Source of the DNA: Tissierellia bacterium
Lineage (GTDB): Bacteria > Bacillota > Clostridia > Tissierellales > Tepidimicrobiaceae
Assembly: GCA_012728365.1 (NCBI GenBank)
Contig: JAAYFE010000017.1
Location: forward strand, 1-32,897
Reading direction: 5' to 3'
DNA length: 32,897 nucleotides
Shown: one piece after another, positions 1-23,409 of the stretch
Layout of the letters: every line of letters starts with the position of its first letter
How positions within the stretch are numbered: the stretch's first letter is position 1
The notes under the pieces: model-generated
Told to the model about the DNA's origin: nothing
Databases searched by the model: none
The model's input: only the letters and a program-made list of their open reading frames with translations
Position numbers and translations under genes: made by a program

Positions 1-202
1 AAATGTTATTTGGGTTTATTAAGTATACTCAAAAAAAGACCTAACGGTATAAAATATCATAATAAATGTAAATTTATTCATAAAGAAAACAAAAATGGCA
101 AGTAGAAACTTTTTTTAAATTTACTTGCCGAATTCAAGATTAAAATTAGGGTAAAATAAAAAAATGGAAGATAGGATATTAATTTAAATAAGGAGTATAG
201 AC
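1..202. other. Upstream intergenic region of the mevalonate operon
   Basis: This AT-rich stretch carries no credible gene. It holds an 8-bp perfect inverted repeat (GGCAAGTA at 97-104, TACTTGCC at 122-129) around an A/T-rich loop. No T-run follows the right arm, so it looks more like an operator or RNA leader hairpin than a terminator. A TAAAAT at 152-157 could be a -10 box, but no good -35 box lies at the right distance. The Shine-Dalgarno of the first gene (AAGGAG) lies about 7 bases before its ATG. A promoter for the mevalonate genes is expected here but is not clear. Confidence 0.4.
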
Positions 203-1150
203 ATGGAAAATAGAAAAGCAATAAAAACTGCAATAGGTAAAATAATCTTAATGGGTGAACATGCAGTAGTATATGGTGAACCGTCAATAGCTATTCCTTT
301 TCCTGAAGTTAGGATTAAAACTACCATTTATCAAAGTAGAGGCCCTGTTATTCTTGATTGCTGCTATTATAAAGGCCTATTATTAAAAGGACCCAAAATA
401 GTATCAGGGCTAATAGAAGTTATAAGGAAGGTAACGGAAAGCTTTAATGAAAGATTAGAAAATTTTAATATTCATATAGATAGTACAATTCCACCAGAAA
501 GGGGAATGGGTTCCAGTGCTGCAGTGGCCATATCTACAATTCGGGCTTTATATGAATATTTCAATAGACCTTTAACAGAAGATCAACTATTAAAATGGGC
601 TAATGTATCAGAAAAAATTGTCCATGGAAACCCAAGTGGTATAGATGCAGCAGTTGTTGGTGGAGAGAAAACCCTTTATTATAAGAAAGGGATGCCCTTT
701 GTACCCTTTAAATTTAATTTAGATGCCTACTTGGTAGTAGGGGACACTGGTAGAAAAGGTCAAACTAGGGCTGCTGTTGAAGGTGTAAGGCAGTTTATTG
801 AATCTAAGCCTAATGAAGGCATGGAACTTATTAAGGAGTTGGGCAATTTAACAAGGCTAGCAAGAAAGTCAATAGAGGATAAGGATGCTGAAAAACTTGG
901 TCAAGCAATGTTCAAGGCTCATATTATATTAGACAAACTAGGGGTTAGCGATGGTAAACTTAATTTTTTGGTTTCAAAGGCCTTAGACTGTGGCGCTTTA
1001 GGGGCTAAATTAACTGGTGGTGGCAGAGGGGGCTGTATGATAGCCTTAGTAGAGGATATTAAAGGGGCTAACTATATATCCAATTGCCTACTTAAATATG
1101 GTGCCCAAAACACATGGATAAGTAAATTAGGAGATGGTTTAGTTGAATAA
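203..1150 (+). CDS. mvk: Mevalonate kinase
   Basis: This enzyme phosphorylates mevalonate to 5-phosphomevalonate with ATP, the first committed kinase step of the mevalonate route to isoprenoids; it is cytosolic. The 315-aa protein has the GHMP-kinase layout: an N-terminal GKIILMGEHAVVYG motif (residues 12-25), the phosphate-binding loop PPERGMGSSAAV (97-108), the catalytic-Asp region GNPSGIDAAV (142-151, likely D148) and the C-terminal glycine motif TGGGRGG (271-277). The length matches bacterial and archaeal mevalonate kinases. The ATG has AAGGAG 7 bases upstream. It is first in a tight operon, its end overlapping the decarboxylase gene by 8 bp. Within the GHMP family, the gene order with mvaD, pmk and fni supports mevalonate rather than galactose or homoserine as substrate. 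Confidence 0.95.
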   Translation: MENRKAIKTAIGKIILMGEHAVVYGEPSIAIPFPEVRIKTTIYQSRGPVILDCCYYKGLLLKGPKIVSGLIEVIRKVTESFNERLENFNIHIDSTIPPERGMGSSAAVAISTIRALYEYFNRPLTEDQLLKWANVSEKIVHGNPSGIDAAVVGGEKTLYYKKGMPFVPFKFNLDAYLVVGDTGRKGQTRAAVEGVRQFIESKPNEGMELIKELGNLTRLARKSIEDKDAEKLGQAMFKAHIILDKLGVSDGKLNFLVSKALDCGALGAKLTGGGRGGCMIALVEDIKGANYISNCLLKYGAQNTWISKLGDGLVE

Positions 1151-2114
1151 TAGAGGAAAAGCAAGGGCTTATGGCAATATAGCCCTAATTAAATACTGGG
1201 GAAAGAGGGATGAAAAATTAATTTTACCCATGAATAGTAGCCTTTCTCTAACTATAGAATGTTTTTATACGGAAACGGAAGTTATTTTTAGTGATAGTTT
1301 TAATGAAGACTATTTTTACTTAAATGGCAAACTACAGGATAAACTTTCTACTAGGAAAATAAGTGATTTTATAGACTTATTTAGGAAGGCTGCTAATATA
1401 AATATGAAGGCTACAGTTAAAAGTACCAATTTTGTACCTACTGCAGCAGGCTTAGCTTCATCTGCTTCTGGCTTTGCTGCTTTAGCAGCAGCTTGTAATG
1501 TTGCCAGTGGTCTAAATCTTGACCATAGGGAACTATCTATGTATGCCAGACAAGGCTCTGGCAGTGCAACAAGAAGTATTTATGGAGGATTTGTAGAGTG
1601 GAAAAGGGGAACTAATGAAAAAGACTCCTATGCTATACCAATAGATGATGCTAAATGGGATATTGGTATGGTTATAGTTATTATAAATTCAAAGGAAAAG
1701 AAGATTTCTAGTAGAGAAGGGATGAGGCATACTGTTTTAACTTCACCCTTTTATAAGGCTTGGGTTGAAAGCTGTGAGAGGGATATTGAAGAAGCAAAGC
1801 TAGCAATTAAAAATAGGGACTTTGAAAGCTTGGGCCTTATTACAGAAAGAAATGGCTTAATGATGCATGCTACAATGCTTGGAGCAAGTCCCCCCTTTTG
1901 CTATTGGGAGCCAGATAGTGTTTTAGCAATGAAGCTGGTAAGAGAATTAAGAAAAGAAGGTATTACCTGTTATTTTACCATGGATGCTGGCCCTAATGTT
2001 AAAATTTTGTGTAGGCTATCTGAAAGTGATAAAATTAAGAATAGGTTAAAGGAATTTTTTAGGGAAGAAAAGATAATAATTACAGGACCTGGTCCAGGAA
2101 TTGTTCTTTTATAG
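1143..2114 (+). CDS. mvaD: Diphosphomevalonate decarboxylase
   Basis: This enzyme converts 5-diphosphomevalonate to isopentenyl diphosphate with ATP use and CO2 release. Family marks visible in the 323 residues are AYGNIALIKYWGKRD (9-23), the nucleotide loop GLASSASGFAAL (103-114), SGSATRSIYGGF (139-150, with R144 expected to position the substrate) and DAGPN (281-285), where D281 is the expected catalytic base. The start is a TTG inside the end of mvk, served by AGGAG at 1129-1133 with 9 bases of spacing. The 8-bp overlap implies translational coupling. Type 2 isomerase and both mevalonate kinases flank it, as in the mvaK1-mvaD-mvaK2 operons of Gram-positive cocci. The intact motif set makes a phosphomevalonate decarboxylase variant unlikely but not excluded. 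Confidence 0.95.
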   Translation: MNNRGKARAYGNIALIKYWGKRDEKLILPMNSSLSLTIECFYTETEVIFSDSFNEDYFYLNGKLQDKLSTRKISDFIDLFRKAANINMKATVKSTNFVPTAAGLASSASGFAALAAACNVASGLNLDHRELSMYARQGSGSATRSIYGGFVEWKRGTNEKDSYAIPIDDAKWDIGMVIVIINSKEKKISSREGMRHTVLTSPFYKAWVESCERDIEEAKLAIKNRDFESLGLITERNGLMMHATMLGASPPFCYWEPDSVLAMKLVRELRKEGITCYFTMDAGPNVKILCRLSESDKIKNRLKEFFREEKIIITGPGPGIVLL

Positions 2115-2127
2115 GGGAGGTAGAAGG

Positions 2128-3189
2128 GTGATTGTATCTAAGATACCAGGTAAACTATTTATAGCCGGTGAGTATGCAGTGGTAGAGCCAGGCAATACAG
2201 CCATATTGGTAGCAGTAGATAAATTTATAACTGTTACTGTAAATAAGACAAATAAAAAGGGAAGTATTAAGAGCCATGGAGAAAAAATCCATTGGGTCAG
2301 GGATAATGGAAGAATTATTCTGGAAAAGGAAACTTCTAGCCTTCAATATATATTATCAGCCATAAAGATTGTTGAAAAGTATGCAGGGGATTTAGGAAAA
2401 AAATTATCTTATTATGATATAGAAGTAAGTAGCCAATTGGAAAGCAACAATGGAATTAAATATGGCTTAGGTTCAAGTGCTGCAGTAACGGTTGCAACTG
2501 TTGATGCCCTATGCAGATTTTTTGAAATTAAAATTACAGAAGAGGAGCTATTTAAGCTATCAGCTTTAGCCAGCCTTTTAGTTAATAGTAGAAGTTCTTG
2601 TGGAGATATAGCTGCTTGTGTTTATGGCGGTTGGATTGCATATACTACTTTTAATAGGAATTGGCTTTTAAATAAGATGGATGAACTTACAGTGTCAGAG
2701 CTACTTAAATTACAGTGGCTTAGCCTTAAAGTAGAAAAGCTAACCCCACCTGAAGATTTAACCCTGGCTGTTGGCTGGACAGGACTAGCTTCTAGTACTA
2801 AAGATTTAGTAGGTAGCCTAAAGGATAAAATTTTAAATAATGAAAAGGCATATAATAAATTTTTGAAGGAAAGCAAAAAAAGTGTAGATAGGATAATTGC
2901 TGCTTTTAAAGATAACAATATAGAAGAGATTCAAAGACAAATTGAGAAAAATAGAGAACTTCTAGTGGAATTAGGCAATGTATTTAATGTGGAAATAGAG
3001 ACGCCTTTACTAACTAAACTATGCAATATTGCTTTAAAATATAAAGCCAGTGCTAAAGTATCTGGTGCTGGTGGTGGGGATTGTGGTATTGCTATTTTTA
3101 AGGGAAATGATAATTTAGACTTGTTAATAAAAGATTGGGAAAGGGCAGGAATTATCTATCTACCTTTAAATATTTATTATAAAGGGTGA
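2128..3189 (+). CDS. mvaK2: Phosphomevalonate kinase (GHMP family)
   Basis: This enzyme phosphorylates 5-phosphomevalonate to 5-diphosphomevalonate. The 353-aa product begins with PGKLFIAGEYAVVEPGN (residues 7-23), closely resembling the bacterial GHMP-type enzyme (MvaK2), and carries the ATP loop GLGSSAAV (113-120) and the C-terminal SGAGGGDCGIA (312-322). The reading frame is open further upstream, from a TTG at 2101, but GGGGAGG at 2114-2120 sits 7 bases before the GTG at 2128, so that GTG is taken as the start. This also places the gene just after the mvaD stop. The order mvk-mvaD-mvaK2-fni puts the second kinase after the decarboxylase, the arrangement known from staphylococci, streptococci and enterococci. 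Confidence 0.93.
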   Translation: MIVSKIPGKLFIAGEYAVVEPGNTAILVAVDKFITVTVNKTNKKGSIKSHGEKIHWVRDNGRIILEKETSSLQYILSAIKIVEKYAGDLGKKLSYYDIEVSSQLESNNGIKYGLGSSAAVTVATVDALCRFFEIKITEEELFKLSALASLLVNSRSSCGDIAACVYGGWIAYTTFNRNWLLNKMDELTVSELLKLQWLSLKVEKLTPPEDLTLAVGWTGLASSTKDLVGSLKDKILNNEKAYNKFLKESKKSVDRIIAAFKDNNIEEIQRQIEKNRELLVELGNVFNVEIETPLLTKLCNIALKYKASAKVSGAGGGDCGIAIFKGNDNLDLLIKDWERAGIIYLPLNIYYKG

Positions 3190-3195
3190 TTAAAG

Positions 3196-4236
3196 TTGAC
3201 AAATAGAAAAGATGATCATGTAAAATTGGCAGAAATGTTTTTTGAAGAGCCAAGGCCTTCAGATTTTGATAATATTCGTTTTGTGCACCATTCCTTTCCA
3301 GAAATGGCAGTGGATGAAGTAGATATTTCTACGTCTTTTGCAGGATTTACCCTAGGACAGCCCTTTTTCATAAATGCCATGACTGGAGGAAGTGAAAAAA
3401 CAAAGGCAATTAATGAAAAATTAGCCATAGTTGCAAGGGAGACTAAGCTACCTATTGCTTCTGGTTCATTAAGTGCCGCCATTAAGGACCCATCCCTTAT
3501 AGATACTTTTAAGATCATCAGGAAGGTAAATCCATATGGCTTTGTATTTGCTAATTTAGGTGCAGGGCATGATGTGGAAAATGCTAAAAAGGCCATTGAT
3601 ATACTAGAGGCTGATGCTTTACAAATTCATTGTAATGTGGTTCAAGAAATAATAATGCCGGAAGGAGATAGGGACTTTTCAAATTGGCTAAGTAATATTG
3701 AAAAAATTGTAAAGGTTGTAGAAGTTCCTGTTATTGTGAAAGAAGTTGGCTTTGGTATGAGTAAGAAAACCATAAAGGAACTTAAGGATATAGGGGTGAA
3801 AACCATAGATATAAGTGGCTCTGGTGGCACTAATTTTGCCAAAATAGAAAACTATCGCAGGAGCAGGTATAAATACGACTACCTGGAAAACTTTGGTCAG
3901 TCAACGGTTATTTCCCTATTAGAAGCCCAGGATTTTATTAAAGATACAGATATAATAGCATCTGGGGGTATTAGAAATCCTTTAGATATAGTAAAAGCCT
4001 TAGCTCTAGGGGCTAAAGCAGCAGGGCTTGCAGGGGCCTTTTTAAATATGTTATTAAATGATGGAGTTGAAAAGACCATAGAGAATATAAACCATTGGAA
4101 GGAAGAAATAGCATCCATAATGACCATACTTGGGAAAAGAAAGGTATCAGAATTAATTAATGCAGACATAGTAGTATTTAATGAAGTAAGAGAATGGTGC
4201 CTTGCTAGAGGAATAGATATAAGTAATAGATTATAG
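3196..4236 (+). CDS. fni: Type 2 isopentenyl-diphosphate delta-isomerase (FMN-dependent)
   Basis: This enzyme interconverts IPP and DMAPP using reduced FMN, supplying both prenyl building blocks. The 346-aa TIM-barrel protein shows MTGGSE (62-67), the SGSLSAA segment (89-95), HCNVVQ (145-150) followed by MPEGDRDF (154-161) with the conserved acidic active-site region, ISGSGGTNF (206-214) and the FMN phosphate motifs SGGIR (256-260) and GAKAAGLAG (272-280). It is unrelated to the Nudix type 1 isomerase. The start is a TTG 6 bases after the mvaK2 stop, with a modest AAGGGTGA upstream. It closes the mevalonate block; the next gene, lspA, has its own candidate promoter. Confidence 0.95.
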   Translation: MTNRKDDHVKLAEMFFEEPRPSDFDNIRFVHHSFPEMAVDEVDISTSFAGFTLGQPFFINAMTGGSEKTKAINEKLAIVARETKLPIASGSLSAAIKDPSLIDTFKIIRKVNPYGFVFANLGAGHDVENAKKAIDILEADALQIHCNVVQEIIMPEGDRDFSNWLSNIEKIVKVVEVPVIVKEVGFGMSKKTIKELKDIGVKTIDISGSGGTNFAKIENYRRSRYKYDYLENFGQSTVISLLEAQDFIKDTDIIASGGIRNPLDIVKALALGAKAAGLAGAFLNMLLNDGVEKTIENINHWKEEIASIMTILGKRKVSELINADIVVFNEVREWCLARGIDISNRL

Positions 4237-4284
4237 TTTTCGTTAAGTAATGACAAAGCCTTTATTTTTAAAGCAAAAGGCATA

Positions 4285-4313
4285 TTGTAATAATTATGCT
4301 TATGCTTTAAAAT
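4285..4313 (+). promoter_or_regulatory. Candidate sigma-A promoter for lspA-rluD-pyrR
   Basis: TTGTAA (4285-4290) and TAAAAT (4308-4313) are separated by 17 bases and lie about 35 bases before the lspA start. The same stretch can fold into an imperfect hairpin: AAAGCA (4270-4275) with TGCTTT (4303-4308), and GCATA (4280-4284) with TATGC (4295-4299). No T-run follows, so it is not a terminator. I see no clear terminator between fni and this promoter. Confidence 0.5.
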
Positions 4314-4348
4314 AGTAATATAGCTTACTTAGTTAGGAGGAATATATA

Positions 4349-4807
4349 TTGGTGTTTTTTATCATGGTATTGGCTATAGTACTAATAGACCAGATTACAA
4401 AACTAGCAGCAATAAAATATCTAAAAGGCAATAAACCCTTTATTATAATAGAGGATTTTTTTCAGCTTCACTATGTAGAAAATACTGGAGCAGCCTTTGG
4501 GATTTTCAAAAATGGTAGATATTTTTTTATTATAATTTCAATACTAGTCATAATATTTGTGGCCTTTTTTGTCTTTAAGTATTTTAACTCTTTAATCTTA
4601 ACTATGAAAATAGCCCTATCTATGTTTATTGGTGGAGCCATTGGAAATCTTATAGATAGAATTAGATTAGGTTATGTTGTAGATTTTTTAAGTTTTAGGC
4701 TACCCTGGGGCTATGATTTTCCAGTATTTAATATTGCAGATACCTTTATAGTAATTTCAACTATTTTTATAATGGTTATGTTACTTTTCAGTAAGCAGGA
4801 GAATTGA
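4349..4807 (+). CDS. lspA: Lipoprotein signal peptidase (signal peptidase II)
   Basis: This integral membrane aspartyl protease removes the signal peptide of diacylglyceryl-modified prolipoproteins. The 152-aa protein has four hydrophobic segments (about 1-23, 57-78, 84-104 and 127-147) and the family boxes VENTGAAFG (43-51), GGAIGNLIDR (95-104), VVDF (110-113) and NIADTFI (128-134). D112 and D131 fit the catalytic dyad. The start is TTG at 4349, with AGGAGG 8 bases upstream; the first in-frame ATG lies 15 bases further in and would eat into the first membrane segment. The stop region abuts rluD, the usual lspA-rluD pairing in Firmicutes. Confidence 0.95.
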   Translation: MVFFIMVLAIVLIDQITKLAAIKYLKGNKPFIIIEDFFQLHYVENTGAAFGIFKNGRYFFIIISILVIIFVAFFVFKYFNSLILTMKIALSMFIGGAIGNLIDRIRLGYVVDFLSFRLPWGYDFPVFNIADTFIVISTIFIMVMLLFSKQEN

Positions 4808-4815
4808 GGGTTAAT

Positions 4816-5730
4816 ATGGATTTATATAAGTTTATTGTTGAAGAAGAAGCAGGAGAAAGACTTGATGTCTATATAGCAGACCAAATTGAAGATCTTTCAA
4901 GAAGTTATATATCTAAACTTATAAAAAAAGCACTGGTGCTAGTAAATGTAGAAATTAAGAAACCAAAATACATAGTTAAAACGGGAGATTTAATACAGGT
5001 AAATATTCCAGAAATAAAAGGACTAGAGCCTGTCCCACAGGATATACCTCTTAATATTATATATGAAGATGAAGACATTATAGTTGTAAATAAACCTAAG
5101 GGGATGGTTGTACACCCAGCTCCAGGCAGCCCTAACAATACATTGGTAAATGCCTTGTTAAATTATACTGATAAATTGTCAGATATTAATGGGAAAATCA
5201 GACCGGGTATAGTCCACAGATTAGACAAGGATACATCAGGGGTACTAGTTGTTGCAAAAAATAACGAAGCCCATATGGATATAGCAAAACAGCTTAAGGA
5301 AAGAACCGTTAAGAGAATATATATTGCTTTGGCCCATGGAATATTTGGAAAGGATGAAGGAATTATAGATGCTCCCATTGGAAGGAATCCAAGAAATAGG
5401 CTTAAAATGGCTGTTACAAATATAAATAGTAAAGAGGCTATTACAAAGTATAAGGTATTGGAAAGATTTGATAAATATACATTAGTTGAATTATCCCTTT
5501 ATACAGGAAGAACCCATCAAATTAGGGTTCATCTATCTTATATAAATCATCCTGTGGTAGGAGATAGTTTATATACCAATAGAAAAAATGAATTCGGTAT
5601 CAAAAGCCAAATGCTTCATGCACAAAAAATAGGATTTAAAATCCCTAGCACTGGTGAATATATGGAGTTTGAGGCTGAACCTTTAGAGGAATTTACTAAA
5701 GTAATAGAAATATTAAGAAAAAATAGGTAG
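4816..5730 (+). CDS. rluD: Large-subunit rRNA pseudouridine synthase, RluA/RluD family
   Basis: This enzyme isomerises uridines to pseudouridine in 23S rRNA, probably in the helix 69 region if it is the RluD orthologue. The N-terminus is an S4 RNA-binding domain (about residues 10-65), followed by the catalytic domain with the signature HRLDKDTSG (134-142), in which D137 is the expected nucleophile, and the later GRTHQIRVH motif. An upstream in-frame TTG at 4804 overlaps the lspA stop, but its AGGAG is only 1-2 bases away. The ATG at 4816 has GAGGG at 5 bases and is preferred, giving 304 aa. It follows lspA directly and probably shares its transcript. Exact target sites cannot be read from the sequence. 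Confidence 0.9.
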   Translation: MDLYKFIVEEEAGERLDVYIADQIEDLSRSYISKLIKKALVLVNVEIKKPKYIVKTGDLIQVNIPEIKGLEPVPQDIPLNIIYEDEDIIVVNKPKGMVVHPAPGSPNNTLVNALLNYTDKLSDINGKIRPGIVHRLDKDTSGVLVVAKNNEAHMDIAKQLKERTVKRIYIALAHGIFGKDEGIIDAPIGRNPRNRLKMAVTNINSKEAITKYKVLERFDKYTLVELSLYTGRTHQIRVHLSYINHPVVGDSLYTNRKNEFGIKSQMLHAQKIGFKIPSTGEYMEFEAEPLEEFTKVIEILRKNR

Positions 5731-6279
<549 letters not shown>

Positions 6280-22017: not shown

Positions 22018-22040
22018 ATTTTAAAATTAAATATATTTAA

Positions 22041-22123
22041 ACACTAGGGGAGCCTGATGGCTGAGAGGGGATTCGTTCCCGACCCTTGAACCTGAACTAG
22101 GTAATACTAGCGTAGGGAAGTGT
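22041..22123 (+). ncRNA. TPP riboswitch aptamer (THI element)
   Basis: The conserved thi-box core is directly readable: GGGGAGCC, then CTGAGAGGGG, then GACCCTTGAACCTGAAC and TAATACTAGCGTAGGGAAG. P1 can form from ACACT (22041-22045) and AGTGT (22119-22123). CTAG at 22097-22100 pairs with CTAG at 22107-22110. The aptamer is followed by a terminator and by thiT, so the expected action is premature termination when thiamine diphosphate is abundant. Confidence 0.95.
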
Positions 22124-22157
22124 ATTAATATTAGTACATTATTAATGCAGCTATAGT

Positions 22158-22198
22158 ATACCCATTACTTATGTTCAGGTAATGGGTATTATTTTTTT
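22158..22198 (+). terminator. Riboswitch-controlled terminator with overlapping antiterminator
   Basis: ATACCCATTAC (22158-22168) pairs perfectly with GTAATGGGTAT (22179-22189), and seven T residues follow. GTTCAGGT (22173-22180), which spans the loop and the start of the right arm, is exactly complementary to ACCTGAAC (22090-22097) in the conserved aptamer core. This gives a plain model: without TPP, the aptamer segment pairs with the terminator and transcription continues; with TPP, the segment is held in the aptamer and the terminator forms. The pairing is seen in the sequence; the switching is inferred. Confidence 0.85.
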
Positions 22199-22218
22199 AT
22201 AAAGGGGGAGGAATTTTA

Positions 22219-22758
22219 ATGAAAAAATGGAGTACTAAAATGTTAGTCGAGGCAGGAATATTAATTGCATTAGCTTTGATTCTAGATAGAATTAAAGTGT
22301 ATGAAGCACCACAAGGAGGTTCAGTAACTGCTGGTAGTATGATTCCTATTTTCCTATTTTCCTTTAGATGGGGATTGGGACCAGGAGTTGTTGCAGGTGC
22401 TATATTTGGCCTTTTACAACTTTTATTGGGTGGCTGGGTATTTACGCCAATCCAAGCTATTTTAGAATATCCAATAGCCTTTGGAGTGTTAGGCCTTGCA
22501 GGTATTTTTTCAAATAGGGCATATGAAGAAAATAAAAATAGTATAATAGGAATAGTAGCAGGTATTTTATTAGGTATTGGAGTTAGATTTATTTGTCATT
22601 TCCTTGCAGGAATTGTTTTCTTTGCTGAATATGCAGGAAGTCAACACCCATGGATATATTCTCTTGTGTATCAAGCAAGTTATTTAGTTCCTGAGTTTAT
22701 AATTACTGCAGTAATATTATCATTAGTATGGAAGCCACTTATGAAAATTCCAAAATAA
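22219..22758 (+). CDS. thiT: Thiamine-specific ECF transporter substrate-binding subunit ThiT
   Basis: ThiT is the membrane S-component that captures thiamine and works with the shared ECF module (EcfA, EcfA', EcfT), which is not encoded here. The 179-aa protein is very hydrophobic, with about six membrane segments. It shows the ThiT features PQGGSVTAGSMIPI (31-44), ILEYPIAFG (81-89, with E83 and Y84) and the RFICHFLAG segment (123-131, H127), which match thiamine-contacting regions in characterised ThiT. GGGGGAGG precedes the ATG. It lies just behind the TPP riboswitch, which confirms the substrate class. Confidence 0.95.
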   Translation: MKKWSTKMLVEAGILIALALILDRIKVYEAPQGGSVTAGSMIPIFLFSFRWGLGPGVVAGAIFGLLQLLLGGWVFTPIQAILEYPIAFGVLGLAGIFSNRAYEENKNSIIGIVAGILLGIGVRFICHFLAGIVFFAEYAGSQHPWIYSLVYQASYLVPEFIITAVILSLVWKPLMKIPK

Positions 22759-22773
22759 AAGAGGATGAATAAA

Positions 22774-23409
22774 TTGAAAACTTTGCTGGTTTTAAATGGA
22801 GAGAAAGTAAATAATACTACTATACTAAAACTAAGGGATGAAAGTGACTTTATATTGTCAGCTGATGGTGGGACAGATTACTGTATCCAGCTGGGCATAA
22901 TACCAGACTTGGTAATAGGGGACTTGGATTCTATTTCACCTGAAACTTTGGATATATTGCAGGAGAAAAAAGTACCCATTAATATATTTCCCGTCAAAAA
23001 GGATAAGACAGATTCCCAATTATCCATAGAATATTTAATAGATAGGGGAGCCAAGGAAATTACTATAGTTGGAGCTATTGGTAGTAGAATAGATCATTCT
23101 TTAGCCAATATATTACTCTTAAAAACTATTAAGGATAGGGGAGTAAAGGGCAAAATAGTTCATAATAATAATACTATATATTTAATTGATGATGAATTAA
23201 TTTTAGATAAGAAAAATGGTTATTTTGTATCTATTATTCCCATAGAACCAAAAGGGGCACTAGTATCCCTAAAAGGGTTTGAATATGATCTTTCTAAAGC
23301 CAGGATAGCTTTTGCATCTACTTTAGGAATAAGCAATTTTATTAAAGATAATAAGGGATATATAAAGATATATGAAGGCGAATGTTTAGTAGTTATATCT
23401 AAAGACTAG
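22774..23409 (+). CDS. thiN: Thiamine pyrophosphokinase
   Basis: ThiN converts thiamine to thiamine diphosphate with ATP, turning imported vitamin into cofactor. The protein shows the family motifs LNGE near the start, ADGGTDYCI, DLVIGDLDS, KKDKTDSQLSIEYL and the GAIGSRIDHSLANI segment. GAGG at 22761-22764 touches an in-frame ATG at 22765, too close to work. The TTG at 22774 is 9 bases away and gives MKTLLVLNGE, so I prefer it (211 aa); the ATG version would be 214 aa. It lies 15 bases after thiT and shares the riboswitch-controlled transcript. In many Firmicutes thiN follows rpe directly; here thiT and the riboswitch sit between them. Confidence 0.92.
   Translation: MKTLLVLNGEKVNNTTILKLRDESDFILSADGGTDYCIQLGIIPDLVIGDLDSISPETLDILQEKKVPINIFPVKKDKTDSQLSIEYLIDRGAKEITIVGAIGSRIDHSLANILLLKTIKDRGVKGKIVHNNNTIYLIDDELILDKKNGYFVSIIPIEPKGALVSLKGFEYDLSKARIAFASTLGISNFIKDNKGYIKIYEGECLVVISKD

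What the first reader, a model, noticed from the sequence alone, without database searches (positions are those of the whole stretch)
203..4236. Complete lower mevalonate operon in a clostridial-type genome
Four intact genes (mvk, mvaD, mvaK2, fni) with overlaps or short gaps encode mevalonate to IPP/DMAPP. Most Clostridia make isoprenoids by the MEP pathway, while this gene set and order (kinase, decarboxylase, second kinase, type 2 isomerase) is the one known from Gram-positive cocci. The block sits beside the ordinary lspA-rluD-pyrR genes. Either the lineage replaced MEP with mevalonate by transfer of a whole operon, or it keeps both pathways. The first part of the pathway (HMG-CoA synthase and reductase) is not next to it on this side.
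Basis: partly seen in the sequence, partly recalled or inferred. Interest (0 to 1): 0.55.

Follow-up and report, generated by a model that had tools for sequence, protein, structure and literature searches.

The report
Bacterial genes for salvaging external mevalonate
Four intact genes turn mevalonate into the building blocks of isoprenoids, but the genome cannot be seen to make mevalonate; a membrane transporter that goes with these genes in many bacteria suggests that the cells import it.

Summary
The operon is real and intact: mvk, mvaD, mvaK2, fni (203-4236), all over NCBIfam cut-offs and under purifying selection. HMG-CoA synthase is not found over cut-off in this genome or in 99 relatives. 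The one HMG-CoA reductase lies on another contig beside AtuA and transporter genes. IspG and a DXR-II-like protein are present; canonical Dxs and Dxr are not found. In 15 of the 17 relatives with mvaD the operon adjoins a TctA-family permease with a small membrane partner. This permease subfamily occurs in 18 of 18 genomes with mvaD and in 1 of 82 without, and that one has it beside HMG-CoA reductase. Of 80 named loci with the permease, 62 carry lower-mevalonate genes alongside, all on the same strand. Of 50 such genomes, 36 lack HMG-CoA synthase and 7 also lack IspG. Best explanation: a mevalonate salvage module fed by a previously unassigned mevalonate importer. In the window the operon has no permease next to it and sits just upstream of lspA, a site empty in six relatives. 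The enzymes are known; the import-coupled module appears new. Transport itself is untested.

The parts
203..1150 (+). mvk, mevalonate kinase (315 aa)
   Evidence: TIGR00549 277.5 bits over cut-off 163.05; GHMP motifs PPERGMGSS and KLTGGGRGG
1143..2114 (+). mvaD, diphosphomevalonate decarboxylase (323 aa, TTG start)
   Evidence: TIGR01240 398.4 bits over cut-off 171.35; MDAGPN motif; best PDB match 5v2l, E 1.3e-111
2128..3189 (+). mvaK2, phosphomevalonate kinase (GTG 2128 preferred; the open frame runs from TTG 2101)
   Evidence: TIGR01220 423.8 bits over cut-off 165.7, match starts at residue 11 of the longer frame
3196..4236 (+). fni, type 2 isopentenyl-diphosphate isomerase (346 aa, TTG start)
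   Evidence: TIGR02151 410.8 bits over cut-off 281.3
181..202 (+). mvk leader with ribosome binding site, still alike in G001, where the permease gene ends just upstream; in the window 1-180 gave no convincing match to the permease or lspA regions of G001
   Evidence: local alignments
4256..4348 (+). retained leader of lspA: 87 of 93 aligned bases identical to the stretch before lspA in G001, where a dksA/traR-type gene stands instead of fni; marks the right-hand junction of the block
   Evidence: score 149 against a maximum of 32 in 200 shuffles; relatives
4349..6279 (+). lspA-rluD-pyrR, the housekeeping genes downstream; order conserved in relatives without the block

Best explanation
The block is the enzymatic half of a mevalonate salvage module. 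Mevalonate made by other organisms is taken up by a TctA-family permease with a small two-helix partner, then phosphorylated twice, decarboxylated and isomerised to IPP and DMAPP. Shown: the four enzymes; that HMG-CoA synthase is not found; and the tie of one permease subfamily to lower-mevalonate genes in many lineages, with two neighbour types (mevalonate kinase; HMG-CoA reductase) that share mevalonate as a metabolite. Inferred: that the permease carries mevalonate, that the direction is inward, and that in this genome the HMG-CoA-reductase-type permease on contig C13 does the job after the operon was parted from its own permease.
For: HMG-CoA synthase TIGR01835: 0 of 100 genomes over cut-off; one of 14 control genomes is over cut-off (the answer does not say which; Lactococcus is the one expected). 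MvaD over cut-off in 18 of 100 genomes, 13 of 20 in the family. Permease profile A1 at E<=1e-20: all 18 mvaD genomes and 1 of 82 others, G030, where it follows HMG-CoA reductase and an HMGL-like (PF00682) enzyme. Fisher p is 6e-19 without correction for kinship; 13 of 13 versus 0 of 7 inside the family. In G000, G005 and G015 the permease is not beside mvk but is present; G005 and G015 have no HMG-CoA reductase, which leaves Mvk as the known mevalonate enzyme there. Named genomes: 62 of 80 permease loci carry Mvk, MvaD or PMK, 62 of 62 on the same strand; 52 have mvk within 200 nt; the small partner is there in 79 of 80. Of 50 of these genomes, 36 lack HMG-CoA synthase and 7 lack IspG as well; all 7 carry the linked operon, though PMK matches in four of them are weak, 25-29% identity. 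Permease and MvaD or Mvk distances agree (Mantel rho 0.51 and 0.61; maxima of 500 permutations 0.14 and 0.15). dN/dS well below 1.
Against: No transport data. Fifteen of the 19 hits supplied rows to the profile, so only G005, G014, G015 and G030, and the 81 absences, are new information there. 13 of 80 loci with room on both sides show no lower-mevalonate gene, one of them with HMG-CoA reductase instead. 14 of 50 genomes have HMG-CoA synthase, so there import would be a supplement, or the permease could export. The window contig starts 202 nt before mvk, and the permease of this genome is on another contig of a 226-contig assembly, with G+C 0.378 against 0.317 for the window and 0.30-0.35 for four other stretches; a stray contig is possible, although its permease is 78-80% identical to those of two family members. 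Fold matches of the permease model are middling.
Confidence: 0.74

Rival explanations
1. Replacement or full second pathway: the organism makes its own mevalonate, with a divergent HMG-CoA synthase that the family model misses and the HMG-CoA reductase of contig C13.
For: G000 has one HMG-CoA reductase over cut-off. Two weak HMG-CoA synthase hits (32.8 and 30.8 bits) exist.
Against: The weak hits are short and far under the cut-off of 360; E. coli and B. subtilis ring in the control too, and only one control genome is over cut-off. None of the other 17 mvaD genomes has the reductase. The reductase lies in a cluster with AtuA, a sigma-54 activator and the permease, and its G030 counterpart stands with an HMGL-like enzyme, which points to breakdown of mevalonate.
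Confidence: 0.1
2. The permease exports mevalonate or carries another organic acid (for example citrate), and its linkage is incidental or serves overflow control.
For: Characterised TTT systems mostly take up citrate (passages of PMC5812351). Fourteen of 50 permease genomes have HMG-CoA synthase.
Against: Seven genomes with the linked operon show neither HMG-CoA synthase nor IspG, where export would make no sense. Linkage recurs with two unlike mevalonate enzymes.
Confidence: 0.12
3. The lower operon is a decaying remnant of a once complete mevalonate pathway and is no longer used.
For: The upper half is missing, and the window's operon has no permease next to it.
Against: All four frames are intact, dN/dS is 0.06 to 0.21, and mvaD is kept in 13 of 20 family genomes.
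Confidence: 0.04

Closest known systems
Gram-positive mevalonate operon mvaK1-mvaD-mvaK2(-fni) of staphylococci, streptococci and enterococci
   Same: Same enzymes and order (order recalled); MvaD best matches solved mevalonate diphosphate decarboxylases 5v2l/6e2s, then 2hk2
   Different: In those cocci the cell makes mevalonate with MvaS and MvaA (general knowledge; passages of PMC6052127 for S. aureus). Here HMG-CoA synthase is not found and the operon goes with a permease.
Mevalonate catabolism of Pseudomonas mevalonii (HMG-CoA reductase and lyase; recalled)
   Same: External mevalonate is the substrate; the G030 locus pairs HMG-CoA reductase with an HMGL-like enzyme and the same permease family
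   Different: The window operon builds IPP rather than breaking mevalonate down.
Tripartite tricarboxylate transporters (TctABC)
   Same: Membrane protein is PF01970 TctA, 83 to 91 bits over cut-off 28.9 in three scanned
   Different: Small partner has no Pfam match; no binding protein gene was recognised by eye in the operons; predicted substrate is mevalonate, not citrate
Mevalonate-requiring sake lactobacilli ('hiochic acid'; recalled, not found)
   Same: Bacteria that depend on external mevalonate
   Different: No transporter gene was known to me; not tested here whether they carry this permease

Membership tests
Lower mevalonate pathway (Mvk, PMK, MvaD, Fni) | All four enzyme families over curated cut-offs, intact frames | tested here: met
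   motifs; dN/dS
Complete mevalonate pathway | HMG-CoA synthase in the genome | tested here: not met
   TIGR01835: G000 best 32.8 bits against a cut-off of 360.35; 0 of 100 genomes over cut-off
Complete mevalonate pathway | HMG-CoA reductase in the genome, in a biosynthetic setting | tested here: inconclusive
   One PF00368 protein on C13, but among AtuA, transporter and sigma-54 regulator genes
MEP pathway | IspG | tested here: met
   TIGR00612 437.1 bits at C168:39447
MEP pathway | Canonical Dxr or DXR-II reductoisomerase | tested here: inconclusive
   Canonical Dxr absent. PF21135 protein at C101; its G001 counterpart matches Brucella DRL 3upy/3upl at E 2e-99 (entry names recalled as Brucella DRL). 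True DXR-II was not told apart from the related oxidoreductases described in PMC3847144.
MEP pathway | Dxs | tested here: not met
   No hit over cut-off in G000 or in any of 13 family genomes; the best hits look like a split transketolase by their layout
MEP pathway | IspD, IspE, IspF, IspH | not tested
Tripartite tricarboxylate transporter family | TctA membrane protein | tested here: met
   PF01970 in three permeases scanned, including that of G000
Tripartite tricarboxylate transporter family | TctB small subunit | tested here: inconclusive
   Small partner with two hydrophobic segments, no Pfam match
Tripartite tricarboxylate transporter family | TctC binding protein | not tested
   None was recognised by eye among neighbours; no family scan for it was run
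Mevalonate importer | Transport of mevalonate | not testable with these tools
   Inferred from gene context only

The most novel reading that the evidence does not exclude
A dedicated natural mevalonate importer exists in bacteria: a TctA-type permease with a small two-helix partner. It defines a widespread mevalonate salvage module across Tissierellales, Lactobacillales, Erysipelotrichales, Mollicutes, Clostridium and Bacillaceae. Some carriers, among them Helcococcus sueciensis, depend entirely on mevalonate shed by neighbours, which makes mevalonate a shared public good.
Probability: 0.62. Interest if true: 0.78.

Novelty: new variant of a known kind. Interest (0 to 1): 0.62.

Why it matters
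[quoted passage not shown] A natural importer would give a tool for isoprenoid engineering and explain orphan lower-mevalonate operons. It would also turn cross-feeding on mevalonate into a testable question and predict which bacteria need it.

Tried and rejected
Replacement of MEP by a full mevalonate pathway was rejected on the missing HMG-CoA synthase. The idea that the DXR-II-like gene is encoded beside an E1-type pair that could act as an alternative Dxs was examined. In G001, G003, G008, G012 and G013 the gene stands between a flavoprotein gene and a lipoate ligase gene (named by eye). In G005 and G057 such genes lie in or beside a sorbitol-PTS operon, with an E1-type pair further along (by eye; PTS genes of G005 scanned); dropped.

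An ECF-type transporter beside mvk in G005 and G015 was suspected in a note and dropped on reading the G005 proteins: by eye an endonuclease-IV-like protein, a SRAP-like protein and a small membrane protein of unknown kind; they were not scanned. A first guess that the 452-aa protein is a sodium symporter of the PanF type (same note) was wrong; it is TctA.

The permease fold search gave no Foldseek match at E<=0.001. VIA-align gave a plant YS1 transporter at Z 10.3 (rmsd 5.8, 278 residues aligned) and Pho90, INDY and TRAP proteins at Z 6 to 7, too weak to state a mechanism. A profile of the permease found no solved relative by sequence at E<=1.

Paper searches for mevalonate salvage, import or permeases listed nothing that ties TctA to mevalonate, judged by titles and starts of abstracts. 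The 4 papers that hold both 'tripartite tricarboxylate transporter' and 'mevalonate' (3 listed) were not opened. Subscription journals are mostly not in that library. The promoter and terminator scan of 1-5000 was no richer than shuffles.
Full report
The observation. Four genes at 203-4236 encode mevalonate kinase, diphosphomevalonate decarboxylase, phosphomevalonate kinase and type 2 isomerase, each over its curated cut-off, with the expected motifs. Between this genome (G000) and its genus mate G001, synonymous changes far outnumber amino-acid changes per site in all four genes. The window is one whole contig, C33, of a 226-contig assembly estimated 94.5% complete. The contig starts 202 bases before mvk.

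Who it is. The genomes are unnamed. So the window comes from a Tissierellales-type bacterium (inference).

Missing upper half. HMG-CoA synthase is over cut-off in 0 of 100 genomes, G000 included. Eleven of 14 control genomes ring, one of them over cut-off; the answer does not name it, and Lactococcus is the one expected. HMG-CoA reductase occurs in 3 of 100: G000, G030 and G078. In G000 it lies on contig C13 with AtuA, an AtuA ferredoxin-like protein, a sigma-54 activator, a small membrane protein and a TctA permease. In G030 it stands between an HMGL-like (PF00682) enzyme and a small membrane protein followed by the same kind of permease, which looks like breakdown of mevalonate (inference).

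MEP status. IspG is over cut-off in 97 of 100 genomes and in all 20 of the family. Canonical Dxr is over cut-off in 44 of 100 and in none of the family. A PF21135 (DXR-II-like) protein is in 52 of 100 and in 17 of 20 of the family; the G001 copy matches the Brucella enzyme over 421 residues. PF21135 also covers genes in sorbitol-PTS operons, so DXR-II activity is not proved. Canonical Dxs was sought in 21 genomes: it is over cut-off only in G021, G024, G025, G026 and G027, the same five of those 21 that have canonical Dxr. A working MEP pathway in G000 is therefore not established; IspD, IspE, IspF and IspH were not searched.

Distribution of the operon. MvaD is over cut-off in 18 of 100 genomes: 13 of 20 in the family, plus G043, G085, G049, G060 and G068. 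The MvaD tree has 70 rows: 67 loci, the window and two PDB sequences; duplicates and some cut loci were left out, and support is SH-aLRT from a quick search. The window groups with G001 (98), then with G003 and G043 (99), inside a clade of 15 rows (97): Tissierellales and two Erysipelothrix MAGs. Carnobacteriaceae and Vagococcus branch beside this clade (94). G049, G060 and G068 fall among Clostridium. This is family-level inheritance with several transfers between groups; the direction was not determined.

Locus. In G001, G003, G006, G008, G009 and G012 lspA-rluD-pyrR is present without the block before it. A dksA/traR-type gene precedes lspA in five of the six; in G008 the gene before lspA is of another kind (the dksA/traR family was scanned for G001 only, the others were judged by eye). 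In the window the 93 bases before lspA still match G001 (87 of 93), so the block was inserted there. The left junction is not on the contig. Mis-assembly cannot be ruled out; no repeat was noticed at the right junction, but I ran no repeat search.

The permease. In 15 of the 17 relatives with mvaD the operon adjoins, or in G049, G060 and G068 contains, a gene of about 452 codons of the TctA family, mostly with a small gene before it. The two without are G005 and G015. A profile of 15 of these permeases (A1, which includes the C13 copy of G000) was run on the 100 genomes at E<=1e-20. It hit 19: all 18 with MvaD, and G030. Fifteen of the 19 had supplied rows to the profile; G005, G014, G015 and G030 had not. 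In G000, G005 and G015 the permease is not beside mvk and is of a second type that also includes the G030 copy (71-88% identical within the type, 36-41% to the mvk-linked type). So the three genomes whose operon lacks a linked permease carry the second type elsewhere.

Test in named genomes. A scan of genome contigs (84,980 species by its description) with alignment A2 found 237 relatives; the best 80 were kept and the other 157 were not seen. Within the stored flanks, 62 of 80 have Mvk, MvaD or PMK, 58 have all three and 44 have Fni too. All 62 have them on the permease strand, 52 have mvk starting within 200 nt of the permease, and 79 have the small partner. Of the 18 without, 5 are cut by the contig end within 316 nt of the permease (one of them, L161, begins what looks like Mvk). 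Thirteen show no link; one of these, L209, has HMG-CoA reductase directly upstream. Nine of the other 12 are Oceanobacillus, Virgibacillus, Lentibacillus or Cerasibacillus; the rest are Allofustis and two Sporolactobacillus.

Who needs import. In 50 of the 80 genomes, HMG-CoA synthase is present in 14 and IspG in 32, one of them split and under the cut-off. Neither is found in 7: two Erysipelothrix MAGs, three Izimaplasma or Mollicutes MAGs, the isolate Helcococcus sueciensis DSM 17243 and bacterium M55B118. All seven carry permease, Mvk, MvaD, PMK and Fni together; in the three Izimaplasma or Mollicutes MAGs and M55B118 the PMK match is weak, 25-29% identity. Twenty-nine have IspG only, 11 have the synthase only and 3 have both. 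No completeness values were given for these genomes, and five of the seven are labelled MAGs, so some absences may be gaps; Helcococcus is the firmest case. HMG-CoA reductase was not searched in these 50.

Co-inheritance. Over 65 loci, permease distances follow Mvk (rho 0.61) and MvaD (rho 0.51); the largest of 500 permutations reached 0.15 and 0.14.

Mechanism. Shown: enzymes, gene context, missing synthase. Inferred: the permease brings in mevalonate, since mevalonate is the metabolite that mevalonate kinase and HMG-CoA reductase share; the direction is inward, since many carriers cannot be seen to make it. An AlphaFold model of the permease (mean pLDDT 86.9) has only middling matches to solved transporters, so the transport mechanism is left open.

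What is known. A 2026 review discusses partial and dual pathways, notes species of Clostridium with genes of both pathways, and reports that all Legionella it analysed lack phosphomevalonate kinase and most also lack HMG-CoA synthase, so mevalonate genes without the synthase are in print; the passages and the one section I read name no import-coupled lower pathway (PMC13001223). [quoted passage not shown] PMC3847144 (passages) reports DXR-II in Firmicutes and two Firmicutes strains with no other MEP or mevalonate gene found. My searches listed no paper that ties TctA to mevalonate.

Noticed in passing
G000-G012, G020, G022, G023: Sixteen of 21 genomes lack both canonical Dxs and canonical Dxr yet keep IspG; seven family members of the window (G004, G006-G011) also lack mvaD. 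How they make IPP is unexplained.
   Followed up: partly
L243 (G005:C163), L246 (G057:C10): PF21135 (DXR-II-like) genes sit in or beside sorbitol-PTS operons (Pfam scan for G005, by eye for G057), so this family is not only an isoprenoid enzyme.
   Followed up: partly
L094 (G000:C13), L128 (G030:C80), L129 (G078:C92): HMG-CoA reductase clusters with AtuA (G000, G078) or an HMGL-like enzyme (G030), a sigma-54-type activator (scanned for G000, by eye for the others) and a permease: likely mevalonate breakdown operons. G078 has a weakly GntP-like permease instead of TctA.
   Followed up: partly
L142, L143, L145, L151, L154 (Enterococcus): Five Enterococcus genomes carry the permease and lower operon, lack HMG-CoA synthase and have IspG, unlike the picture of the genus that I recall.
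   Followed up: no
L188, L189, L190, L195, L205 (Sporolactobacillus): Close species differ in whether the permease is linked to the operon.
   Followed up: no
L096, L097, L101 (G012, G017, G019): No fni was matched in these operon stretches, unlike the window.
   Followed up: no
window 22036-23409: TPP riboswitch ahead of thiT and thiamine diphosphokinase; ordinary.
   Followed up: yes
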